Shown: piece after piece, positions 3,590 to 5,670 of the stretch
How positions within the stretch are numbered: the stretch's first letter is position 1
How the letters are laid out: every line of letters starts with the position of its first letter
NCBI RefSeq assembly: GCF_000164635.1
Contig: NZ_GG770777.1
Coordinates: forward strand, 599,130-663,129
Source: Pseudoroseomonas cervicalis ATCC 49957
GTDB taxonomy: Bacteria; Pseudomonadota; Alphaproteobacteria; Acetobacterales; Acetobacteraceae
DNA length: 64,000 nucleotides
Direction: 5' to 3'
Position numbers and translations under genes: made by a program
The notes under the pieces: model-generated
What the model saw: the letters and a program-made list of their open reading frames with translations, nothing else
Databases searched by the model: none
Told to the model about the DNA's origin: nothing

Positions 3590-3853
3590 TCAGCCCCGGG
3601 AACGGACAGCCGCTCCCCGCCGCTCCCGCCAGAACTCCCAGCCCAGCCAAATGAACCCGGCGATGCCCCCTACCGTGGACGCCGCGCCCACCGCCCACAT
3701 GCCCATCACGACCGCTGCTTTTCCGACAGTGGCCCCGGGATCCACGATGCCCTCGAGCCAGCCTGTGGGCATCGGCTCGCCACCAAAGACCAGCAGCGCG
3801 GCGGCCGGGGCGGTCACGGCCGCCAGCTTCAAGGTGTAGGTTGCCAGGCTCAT
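3590..3853 (-). CDS. Small predicted membrane protein, unknown function
   Basis: About 87 residues from the ATG at 3853, where a purine-rich AGAGAGCGG lies just upstream; an upstream start at 3895 is possible but looks less natural. Two hydrophobic segments are visible, one near the N-terminus (LKLAAVTAPAAALLVFGG) and one after residue 50 (VGAASTVGGIAGFIWLGW), separated by a short Pro/Asp-containing loop. The C-terminus is basic (WRERRGAAVRSRG). It looks like a two-pass inner-membrane protein. No family was recognised. Confidence 0.5.
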   Translation of the reverse strand: MSLATYTLKLAAVTAPAAALLVFGGEPMPTGWLEGIVDPGATVGKAAVVMGMWAVGAASTVGGIAGFIWLGWEFWRERRGAAVRSRG

Positions 3854-3962
3854 TGTCCGCTCTCTGTCTTCGGCACCGATACGTTCGGGCAGCATAGGAG
3901 GTTCATCGGCGCTTGCCAGGGCTCATGGCGCCCGGGCTAGGCTGGCGGCCGGAGGACTGCGG

Positions 3963-4214
3963 ATGCCGTCCTATTCAGTTGATCCGGCCATCCAAGCTGA
4001 GGCCCGCCGACGCGCCTTGGAAGACCTCGACCGTGACCTTGGCTCGGCGGCCGAGTTGCTGGCTGGGCGTGGCTACCATAGCCCCGATAGCAGGCCCTAC
4101 CCCACTCAGGAAGCGATTGCACTGAGGCGAACATCGGCCGTTGAGGGATCGAACAAGCCTATCGTCCGGCCAAGCTTCGAGGGAGACGGACCATCTGCAA
4201 CCTCTACTCCATGA
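3963..4214 (+). CDS. Small hypothetical protein upstream of the SRAP gene
   Basis: An 83-residue frame beginning MPSYSVDPAIQAEARRRALE. A good Shine-Dalgarno sequence (GGAGG) lies 7 nt before the ATG, which is the main reason for calling it. The N-terminal third is an amphipathic helix; the rest is low complexity. Its end overlaps the inferred start of the SRAP gene by about 20 nt, which would fit translational coupling. No family recognised. Confidence 0.45.
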   Translation: MPSYSVDPAIQAEARRRALEDLDRDLGSAAELLAGRGYHSPDSRPYPTQEAIALRRTSAVEGSNKPIVRPSFEGDGPSATSTP

Positions 4215-4837
4215 CCAGCAACCAGCGGGCCATCCTGGAGCTGACCCGGGCCACGAGGGACCGCACCGGAAACCTCCCTCCCCTTCCCGCCATCTATCCC
4301 GACAGCATGGCGCCGGTTGTGCGGCAGGGTGAGAACGGTGAGCGGGAACTGACCATGATGCGCTGGGGCATGCCGGGCCCCGTGCAGTACGGCGGCCACC
4401 CGGTGACCAACATCCGCAACACCCGCAGCCCGCACTGGCGCCGCTGGCTTGGCCCGGCGCAGCGCTGCTTGGTGCCGGTGACGTCCTTCAGCGAGTGGGA
4501 GGACACTAAGCCCAAGAAGACGCCGGTGTGGTTCGCGCTGTCGGAGGAGCGGCCGCTGTTCGCCTTCGCGGGCATTTGGACCACTTGGACCGGCACGCGC
4601 GGGCCGAAGTCGGCTCCGGTCGAGGGCGAGCACGAGCTCTACGGCTTCCTGACCTGCGATCCGAACGAGACGGTCGGTGCCATTCATCCCAAGGCGATGC
4701 CGGTGCTGCTGACCACGCCGGACGAGATGGACACTTGGCTGGAGGCGCCGTGGGAGATCGCCCGCGAGTTGCAGCGCCCGTTGCCGGACGACGACATGCT
4801 CATCGTGGCCAGGGGAGATAGGAGGGATCCGGCATAA
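4193..4837 (+). CDS. SRAP-domain (YedK/HMCES-like) protein with ATC at the start position
   Basis: SRAP proteins protect abasic sites in single-stranded DNA by forming a covalent thiazolidine link through the Cys exposed as residue 1 after Met removal. The match runs through NIRN (after VT), CLVPVTSFSEW, FAFAGIW, FLTCDPNETV, IHPKAMPVLL and LQRPLP, so the Asn, Glu and His catalytic positions are present. The family begins Met-Cys-Asn-Leu-Tyr-Ser; here the DNA reads ATC TGC AAC CTC TAC TCC ATG, preceded by GAGGGAG. No ATG, GTG or TTG lies upstream in frame. Either ATC is used as a rare start, or translation starts at 4211 and loses the catalytic Cys. Confidence 0.88.
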   Translation: MCNLYSMTSNQRAILELTRATRDRTGNLPPLPAIYPDSMAPVVRQGENGERELTMMRWGMPGPVQYGGHPVTNIRNTRSPHWRRWLGPAQRCLVPVTSFSEWEDTKPKKTPVWFALSEERPLFAFAGIWTTWTGTRGPKSAPVEGEHELYGFLTCDPNETVGAIHPKAMPVLLTTPDEMDTWLEAPWEIARELQRPLPDDDMLIVARGDRRDPA

Positions 4838-4873: not shown

Positions 4874-5479
4874 TCAGCGGGGCAGGAACAAACCCTTGAT
4901 GCAGGCGTCATTGCATACCGCAATCTGGGTATGGGATTTCAGATAGAAGCCGCCGTCTGGGTAGGCAGGCTCGCCTTCGGTGAACAGGCCGCGGACTGTA
5001 TCGAAGGGAGCCAGTGCTTCGGTGCCGCGAGGCAGATCATCCTTCTGCTCCAGGATGGAATGGAGGCGGCGGATGACGGCGCAGTCCAGATTGCGAAGCA
5101 GCTTATCGTTGGTGGTGCTGCCCTTAATGTCCTTGTTGCGAGGCAGCGCTAACCCGCTCTTCTCGTGCGAAGCTGCAAGGCTCTCATAAGCGATCTTCAG
5201 CCAGTCAAGGTTCTCGCGGACCAGAAGATCCAGGCAATTGCCCAAGTCAATGACTGCCCCAAGAACGAACGGCTTCTTATAGGCGCCGCGAGCAACCTTC
5301 TCCTCGGCCCACTCGCGTGCGCGCCCGGGATCGCCCTCCCAGAAATAGACGCCTGGGCCAAGCCAGTCGTAATCTCTTTCGCTGCGTAGCAGGCTTACTT
5401 CGCCAGCAAGGGCTTTCCTGCCCACCTCTTCGTCGCAGCCGTGATAGCCGAGAACGAAGGAAGTAGCGTACCGGCTCAA
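4874..5479 (-). CDS. ADP-ribosyltransferase-fold-like protein, candidate toxin
   Basis: A 201-residue protein. Near the N-terminus it has GYHGCD (residues 11-16), then YDWLGPGVYFWE (about 37-48) and a helix REWAEEK. This His-Gly, then Gly-x-Gly-x-Tyr, then Trp-Ala pattern recalls DUF3990 and other ADP-ribosyltransferase-like domains in toxin-antitoxin and effector proteins. The C-terminus carries FDTVRGLFTEG and IAVCNDACIKGLF. The start ATG overlaps the stop of the small gene at 5476-5670 by 4 bases (ATGA), so the two are co-translated. Enzyme activity and toxicity are inference; I recognise the pattern but not a named characterised protein. Confidence 0.7.
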   Translation of the reverse strand: MSRYATSFVLGYHGCDEEVGRKALAGEVSLLRSERDYDWLGPGVYFWEGDPGRAREWAEEKVARGAYKKPFVLGAVIDLGNCLDLLVRENLDWLKIAYESLAASHEKSGLALPRNKDIKGSTTNDKLLRNLDCAVIRRLHSILEQKDDLPRGTEALAPFDTVRGLFTEGEPAYPDGGFYLKSHTQIAVCNDACIKGLFLPR

Positions 5480-5670
5480 CTACGGACCGCGGCTGGCTTC
5501 TTTGCTGACTTCTTCAACGCTGTGCCGCCGTACTCAGGAGCAAGACGGCCATCAGCAAGCCGGATACCCTCGCGAACCAAAGCAGCCCGGGCAACATTAC
5601 GGGTAGTGGTGTTCACCTCAGTGTACCGCTTGGCCATCATCTCGAAGGTCTTGCGCTGGGCTTCCGTCAT
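5476..5670 (-). CDS. Small partner protein, candidate antitoxin
   Basis: A 64-residue protein starting MTEAQRKTFEMMAKRYTEVN and continuing RNVARAALVREGI, then LADGRLAPEYGG and a Lys/Ala-rich tail. It is mostly helical and charged. It is the first gene of a two-gene minus-strand unit, overlapping the start of the ADP-ribosyltransferase-like gene by 4 nt. Gene order (small first, larger enzyme-like second) and tight overlap are typical of toxin-antitoxin pairs, which is the basis of the suggestion. No DNA-binding motif was identified with confidence. Confidence 0.65.
   Translation of the reverse strand: MTEAQRKTFEMMAKRYTEVNTTTRNVARAALVREGIRLADGRLAPEYGGTALKKSAKKPAAVRS

What the first reader, a model, noticed from the sequence alone, without database searches (positions are those of the whole stretch)
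4187..4837. SRAP/YedK gene with ATC where the start codon should be
The family starts Met-Cys-Asn-Leu-Tyr-Ser, with Cys2 as the catalytic residue. Here the DNA reads ATC TGC AAC CTC TAC TCC ATG, with GAGGGAG correctly placed before the ATC and no other start codon upstream in frame. AUC initiation is very rare. If translation instead begins at the next ATG (4211), the protein lacks its catalytic Cys and would be inactive as a crosslinker.
Basis: partly seen in the sequence, partly recalled or inferred. Interest (0 to 1): 0.7.

Follow-up and report, generated by a model that had tools for sequence, protein, structure and literature searches.

The report
DNA-repair gene beginning with ATC
A bacterial DNA-repair (SRAP) gene starts with ATC instead of ATG; it is otherwise intact, and relatives have reached the same odd start several times, often because a mobile element landed exactly on the start codon.

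Summary
ATC (4193-4195) directly precedes Cys2 of an intact SRAP gene, behind a strong Shine-Dalgarno. No in-frame ATG/GTG/TTG lies between it and the stop at 4142; the next ATG (4211) has no Shine-Dalgarno and would drop Cys2. The nearest relatives (91% identical) have ATG. Lineage-specific changes (14 silent/7 replacement, against 15/8 in an ATG relative) show no relaxed selection, so weak AUC initiation is my best reading. It is unproven: start loss in a gene that two sister species have mostly deleted, or a base error, remain possible.

In Siccirubricoccus and three Rhizobium plasmids an IS1111-type (IS110-family) element sits at codon 1-2, and its right end supplies both a Shine-Dalgarno and ATC; P. 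wenyumeiae and Paracoccus aeridis keep only that right end, with ATC and ATT. Two of the Rhizobium SRAP genes are already annotated from ATC. The window shows no detectable IS remnant, so here a G-to-C substitution is likeliest. All 4 ATH starts hit in 397 family genomes were ATC.

The parts
4193..4837 (+). SRAP (YedK/HMCES-type) gene, 214 codons plus stop, first codon ATC
4193..4195 (+). ATC in the start-codon position
   Evidence: ATG in the nearest relatives
4179..4185 (+). Shine-Dalgarno GAGGGAG, 7 nt before ATC; anti-SD pairing -8.5 kcal/mol
4196..4198 (+). Cys2 codon (cross-linking residue)
   Evidence: role of Cys2: PMC9436759, passages
4142..4144 (+). in-frame TGA that bounds the open frame upstream
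4211..4213 (+). next in-frame ATG (Met7); no Shine-Dalgarno; product would lack Cys2
3963..4214 (+). small ORF in another frame, cut short at about 4103-4107 compared with its relatives; its end overlaps the SRAP start
4108..4192 (+). 85-nt leader between the cut small ORF and ATC; no significant match to IS1111 right ends

Best explanation
This is an accessory SRAP gene whose ATG has become ATC inside a start region that otherwise works. The ribosome is placed by the strong GAGGGAG site and starts, at reduced rate, on AUC with initiator fMet-tRNA. Methionine aminopeptidase then removes Met and exposes Cys2, so the small amount of protein made would be a normal abasic-site cross-linker. Shown: the ATC, the Shine-Dalgarno site, the intact frame, the kept catalytic residues, ATG in the nearest relatives, and no sign of relaxed selection. 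Inferred: that AUC is used, that its rate is low, and that the change was a point substitution.
For: Only the frame opened by ATC 4193 contains Cys2, and ATC has a Shine-Dalgarno while ATG 4211 has none (-8.5 against 0 kcal/mol). In a set of 103 distinct SRAP starts only 7 of 78 ATG genes have pairing as strong. L003/L004 (91% identical) have GGGAGACAGGCG-ATG where the window has GGGAGACGGACC-ATC, 9 of 12 leader bases alike (a distant row, L118, also has 9 of 12). Pairwise dN/dS against seven ATG relatives is 0.065-0.154 and against one GTG relative 0.120. Lineage-specific changes are 14 silent/7 replacement in the window against 15/8 in L087, with five outgroups. Recurrence: the ATC/ATT label needs 7 changes on a tree of 99 frames of at least 195 residues, at least 6 forced by well-supported branches. 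ATC/ATT starts sit behind stronger Shine-Dalgarno sites than ATG/GTG/TTG ones (10 against 93 rows, p=2.8e-6; rows are not independent, several share one IS-derived leader). Two Rhizobium plasmid records annotate the SRAP gene from ATC (annotation, not a test). Met1 of YedK is removed by an aminopeptidase and the Cys2 amine is the nucleophile (PMC9436759, passages).
Against: No expression data. The date of the ATC change is unknown, so the selection test may mostly describe the time before it. The window-L087 dN/dS (0.148) is above those of L087 with three other ATG relatives (0.069-0.107). Two relatives keep only a 161-nt 3' remnant of SRAP at this locus, and two other ATC copies are broken: G004 (frame of 107 aa) and G022 (frameshift). 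So accessory SRAP genes here are often lost. The genome has a second, distant SRAP with an MCGRYF start and Cys2, so loss of this one could be tolerated.
Confidence: 0.52

Rival explanations
1. Young pseudogene: the start codon was lost and the gene makes no active SRAP, at most a Cys-less fragment from ATG 4211.
For: ATG 4211 has no Shine-Dalgarno. SRAP copies in this genus are often broken: a TAA inside the G009 copy, the G010 copy split over two frames, the G004 copy cut short, a 161-nt remnant at this locus in G009 and G016. A second SRAP exists in the genome.
Against: Complete 214-codon frame, catalytic residues kept, same silent/replacement balance as an ATG relative; the strong Shine-Dalgarno is kept.
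Confidence: 0.25
2. Sequencing or assembly error: the base at 4195 is really G.
For: One assembly, no reads available here; a single base decides the matter.
Against: ATC at the same codon occurs in other assemblies: 3 of 14 places in 17 genus genomes, the window included, and 4 of 4 ATH hits in 397 family genomes, the window included. So ATC is a real state of this codon in the family. The window frame has no frameshift or stop that would point to poor sequence.
Confidence: 0.12
3. The ATC is the scar of a lost IS1111-type element: insertion at codon 1-2 supplied ATC, and a later deletion removed the rest of the element but kept ATC.
For: In L137, L126, L154 and three Rhizobium plasmids the right end ...CCGTCCACAT(C/T) makes exactly this codon. 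The upstream small ORF is cut at about 4103-4107, so the region was rearranged. The three ATH starts without a visible element (window, G004, G022) are all ATC, never ATA.
Against: The 85 nt before ATC do not match IS right ends above shuffles (152 of 500 as good; 45 of 200 for 130 nt). No match to the L137 transposase in the genome (0 of 1; that call had no positive-control genome). The last 12 leader bases resemble those of the nearest ATG relatives.
Confidence: 0.08
4. Translation begins upstream on another unusual codon and the extra residues are clipped off at Cys2 by the SRAP domain itself.
For: Aravind et al. 2013 (PMC3765255, passages) proposed autoproteolysis N-terminal to the Cys, including release of a longer tag from E. 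coli YedK.
Against: No canonical start in the 16 codons between the upstream stop and ATC. YedK active-site mutants still lose Met1, so that removal is not autocatalytic (PMC9436759, passages).
Confidence: 0.03

Closest known systems
SRAP family (PF02586): YedK, HMCES
   Same: Domain over residues 2-202, Cys directly after the first codon, Asn/Glu/His active-site residues
   Different: First codon ATC instead of ATG/GTG/TTG
SRAP genes behind an IS1111-type element on Rhizobium plasmids (L179, L180)
   Same: ATC-TGC start behind a strong Shine-Dalgarno; annotated from ATC in the public records
   Different: There the ATC and leader come from the element's right end; the window has no visible element
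Escherichia coli infC (IF3), AUU start (reference titles seen; details recalled)
   Same: Gene with an AUH start in place of AUG
   Different: infC uses AUU as an autoregulatory device; no such link is shown here
Neisseria PAAR copy disrupted by a CREE repeat, ATG changed to ATC (PMC10210955, one passage)
   Same: A mobile repeat's end turned a start codon into ATC; the authors leave its function open
   Different: Different gene, element and organism; in the window no element is visible
IS1111/IS110 elements with seekRNA-guided target choice (PMC11187229, passages)
   Same: The element before the ATC SRAP genes has a DEDD/Transposase_20 transposase, subterminal inverted repeats TGTGGACGGCC/GGCCGTCCACA and a noncoding region after the transposase
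   Different: Its repeated landing on SRAP codon 1-2, replacing the start region, is not in the passages I saw; the window lacks the element

Membership tests
SRAP (PF02586) | Profile match above the curated cut-off | tested here: met
   96.1 bits against cut-off 27.1
SRAP (PF02586) | Cysteine as second residue | tested here: met
   TGC at 4196-4198 directly after the first codon; it is residue 2 only if translation starts at ATC
SRAP (PF02586) | Conserved Asn, Glu and His of the active site | tested here: met
   Asn73 in NIRN, Glu101 in FSEWE, His165 in IHPKAMP; matched to YedK by motif, not by structure
SRAP (PF02586) | Covalent cross-linking to abasic DNA | not testable with these tools
   needs purified protein
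Genes with a natural AUC start | No canonical start in frame that would keep Cys2, and a well-placed Shine-Dalgarno | tested here: met
Genes with a natural AUC start | Translation shown to begin at AUC | not testable with these tools
   needs N-terminal peptides or ribosome profiling
IS1111-type insertion at SRAP start (window) | IS right end abutting codon 1 | tested here: not met
   152 of 500 shuffles match as well; no match to the L137 transposase in the genome (without positive control)
IS1111-type insertion at SRAP start (L137, L179, L180, L186) | Transposase, subterminal repeats, and SRAP coding sequence directly after the right end | tested here: met
   repeats and right end in all four; transposase by Pfam in L137, by record annotation in L179 and L180, by a short motif in L186, which has no annotation

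The most novel reading that the evidence does not exclude
SRAP genes are a natural hot spot for near-cognate starts: RNA-guided IS1111-type elements repeatedly insert at codon 1-2 of SRAP genes and hand the gene a new leader with a strong Shine-Dalgarno and an AUC/AUU start, which keeps the gene alive at low output; the window gene uses the same AUC solution, whether reached by mutation or as a scar.
Probability: 0.3. Interest if true: 0.75.

Novelty: new variant of a known kind. Interest (0 to 1): 0.5.

Why it matters
In SRAP proteins the catalytic residue is residue 2, so the true start codon can be read from DNA with unusual certainty. That makes the family a natural detector of non-standard starts, which an ORF list limited to ATG/GTG/TTG misses (in one search the window gene begins at Met7). 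If AUC is used, genes that look start-less are making active repair protein. The IS1111 cases also show a targeted mobile element that may replace a host gene's start region without silencing it, which can be tested directly with a reporter.

Tried and rejected
IS remnant in the window: not supported. Shared ancestry of the window's ATC with that of Siccirubricoccus (L137): not supported, since the window lies in a clade of otherwise ATG/GTG rows. dN/dS of the Rhizobium pair L179/L186 as proof of selection after the insertion: dropped, because the IS parts are 98.9% and the SRAP parts 75.1% identical, so the insertions look recent and independent. Four ATT hits in the class survey are chance: short frames without an SRAP continuation. 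A search of the IS noncoding region for 6-base target matches gave nothing clear; the joined empty sites used there came out short, by 1 base (L137) and 6 bases (L179), so that test is weak. In one search the L179 row is misplaced by 5 bases and is not used. In one search the L179 right end ran 5 bases too far and those of L181, L183 and L184 one base; one search has these ends within one base. The element's exact end bases stay unresolved: the published 7 bp left/3 bp right rule does not give back ATG-TGC exactly. I first took the annotated SRAP start in L179 to lie downstream of Cys2; one search shows that the annotated start is the ATC itself in L179 and L180. Denominator caveats: the search used ICNLYSMT as one of six peptide patterns, and searched for ATH only, so the 103-row set is enriched for ATH and its proportions are not frequencies. 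That set also dropped frames under 60 aa, frames with under 45 bases upstream and copies lacking a WG(M/F/L/I)P or W(R/K)(R/K/A)W motif, L018 (ATC, broken) among them. Hecht et al. 2017 on start-codon rates is not held; rates of AUC initiation are recalled.

Full report
THE OBSERVATION. The window reads GAGGGAG-ACGGACC-ATC-TGC-AAC-CTC-TAC-TCC-ATG, with ATC at 4193-4195. The frame runs 214 codons to TAA 4835-4837 and matches Pfam SRAP at E=2.8e-27, residues 2-202. Upstream the frame is open for only 16 codons to TGA 4142-4144 and holds no ATG, GTG or TTG. The next in-frame ATG is Met7 at 4211. The Shine-Dalgarno pairing before ATC is -8.5 kcal/mol and before ATG 4211 it is 0. Cys2, Asn73, Glu101 and His165 are present.

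WHERE IT SITS. The genome is 5.1 Mb in 498 contigs. The genome holds one further, distant SRAP (33% identical, E=2e-9) with an ordinary MCGRYF start. Upstream of the window gene lies a small conserved ORF (3963) that is cut at about 4103-4107. So this is an accessory gene in a region that rearranges.

RELATIVES AT THE SAME CODON. In 17 genus genomes a pattern open at the first codon (CNN excluded) hit 14 places in 9 genomes: 9 ATG, 3 ATC, 1 GTG, 1 TTG. In 200 family genomes, 31 places in 24 genomes: third base G in 29, C in 2; the first base is not shown there. A search for ATH only, in 397 family genomes, found 4 places, all ATC: the window, a frameshifted copy (G022), a full-length Acidiphilium copy (G905, the same match as L159) and a full-length copy in G168 (L188). 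That sample overlaps the earlier one, and its pattern misses the G004 copy. In the class sample of 385 genomes the window was the only real hit; the four ATT places are short frames with no SRAP continuation. In 248 genomes of the Paracoccus aeridis family only that species itself hit. So the trait is rare. Pooled over all loci then fetched, 103 distinct starts were 78 ATG, 13 GTG, 9 ATC, 2 TTG, 1 ATT and nothing else; this set was partly gathered by ATH searches and is not a frequency.

CHANGES ON A TREE. On a maximum-likelihood tree of 99 SRAP frames of at least 195 residues, built without residue 1, the 9 ATC/ATT rows need 7 changes of state (gains or losses), at least 6 of them forced by well-supported branches. 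The window lies in an open clade of 8 whose other members are ATG or GTG.

HOW OTHERS GOT THEIR ATC. Three ATC/ATT copies share a leader ending GGCCGTCCAC-AT(C/T) although their proteins belong to different branches: L126 (P. wenyumeiae), L137 (Siccirubricoccus soli) and L154 (Paracoccus aeridis, ATT). In L137 a transposase of the IS110 family (Transposase_20 E=3.2e-21, DEDD_Tnp_IS110 E=2.9e-11) precedes it. The same right end is found on Rhizobium and Leisingera plasmids before other sequences (L181-L185), and before SRAP with ATC in three Rhizobium plasmids (L179, L180, L186). The subterminal repeats are TGTGGACGGCC on the left and GGCCGTCCACA on the right. In L137, L179, L180 and L186 the left flank ends ...ATGTG, as expected if the element split the native ATG-TGC; GTG also stands there in a non-SRAP insertion (L184), so only the AT is informative. 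The IS1111 group has such repeats and a noncoding region after the transposase that encodes a target-choosing seekRNA (PMC11187229, passages). L179 and L186 have IS parts 98.9% alike but SRAP parts 75.1% alike, so the element probably hit the same spot at least twice in Rhizobium. L126 and L154 keep only about 110-135 bp of the right end before a full-length SRAP. L188 carries a diverged right end (0 of 200 shuffles as good; 17 of 500 for 85 nt); L159 is doubtful (7 of 200; 45 of 500). The annotated SRAP genes of L179 and L180 begin exactly at the ATC: the annotators' pipeline accepted AUC there, which is not a test of it.

THE WINDOW IS DIFFERENT. Its 85 nt before ATC match IS right ends no better than shuffles (152 of 500; 45 of 200 for 130 nt), and a search of its genome with the L137 transposase found nothing (which had no positive-control genome). 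Its last 12 leader bases agree at 9 of 12 with its nearest ATG relatives. The 40-nt comparison is less clear: against L087 30 of 500 shuffles were as good, while two other leaders, L126 (IS-derived) and L140, did better (5 of 500 each). A G-to-C substitution in the native start is the simplest reading; a scar of a lost element is not excluded.

IS IT ALIVE? Pairwise dN/dS is 0.065-0.154 against seven ATG relatives (L087, L089, L085, L088, L139, L006, L007) and 0.120 against a GTG one (L090). With L087 as comparison and five outgroups, the window has 14 silent and 7 replacement lineage changes, L087 15 and 8. This shows no relaxation, but a recent ATC would show none either. ATC/ATT starts lie behind stronger Shine-Dalgarno sites than other starts (p=2.8e-6, 10 against 93 rows, partly one IS-derived leader); the window's -8.5 is reached by 7 of 78 ATG rows. 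Against: broken ATC copies in G004 and G022, and remnants at this locus in two relatives.

MECHANISM. AUC start with fMet, Met removal, exposed Cys2. In YedK the Cys2 amine attacks the abasic site and Met1 is taken off by an aminopeptidase; active-site mutants still lose Met1 (PMC9436759, passages). This speaks against the older autoproteolysis idea (PMC3765255, passages). A protein from Met7 would lack the cross-linking residue. That AUC supports weak initiation in bacteria is recalled; a B. subtilis rny-lacZ fusion with an AUC start was expressed at much lower level than wild type (PMC10303841, one passage).

PRECEDENT AND NOVELTY. The nearest precedent seen is a Neisseria PAAR gene whose ATG became ATC through a CREE repeat, function left open (PMC10210955, one passage). 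Searches for SRAP + YedK + start codon (one paper, not read), IS110 + bridge RNA + target site + start codon (one paper, not read), IS1111 + insertion sequence + start codon + ribosome binding site (two papers, passages seen), 'AUC start codon' (five papers, one looked into) and 'ATC start codon' + bacteria (three papers, one looked into) listed no title or abstract start on an SRAP case. Only open-licence PMC papers are held, so this is no proof of absence. I call it a new variant of a known kind.

Noticed in passing
L137 1637-3003; L179 about 848-2224; L180; L186: IS1111-type element inserted at codon 1-2 of SRAP genes on several replicons, its right end forming a Shine-Dalgarno and an ATC start
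   Followed up: yes
window 3963-4107: Small conserved ORF (106 aa in G011, L083) cut short just upstream of the SRAP gene, so the region was rearranged
   Followed up: partly
L190, L191, L192 against window 3616-4836: The same locus holds an inverted SRAP in G011 and only a 161-nt 3' remnant, plus a short inverted copy of part of it, in G009 and G016
   Followed up: partly
L154 533-2732: ImuB/ImuA-like genes (named from their sequence, no profile search) run divergently from the ATT-start SRAP in Paracoccus; in Rhizobium L179 an annotated ImuA lies upstream and xth and dinB downstream
   Followed up: no
window 4874-5479 and 5476-5670 (- strand): Two ORFs after SRAP without Pfam match; window 4874 onward matches G009 and G016 as one block at about 88%
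   Followed up: no
L178 1501-1561: On Acidiphilium plasmid pACRY02 the SRAP gene has ATG-TGC at 1501 but is annotated from a later ATG at 1561, which would omit Cys2
   Followed up: no
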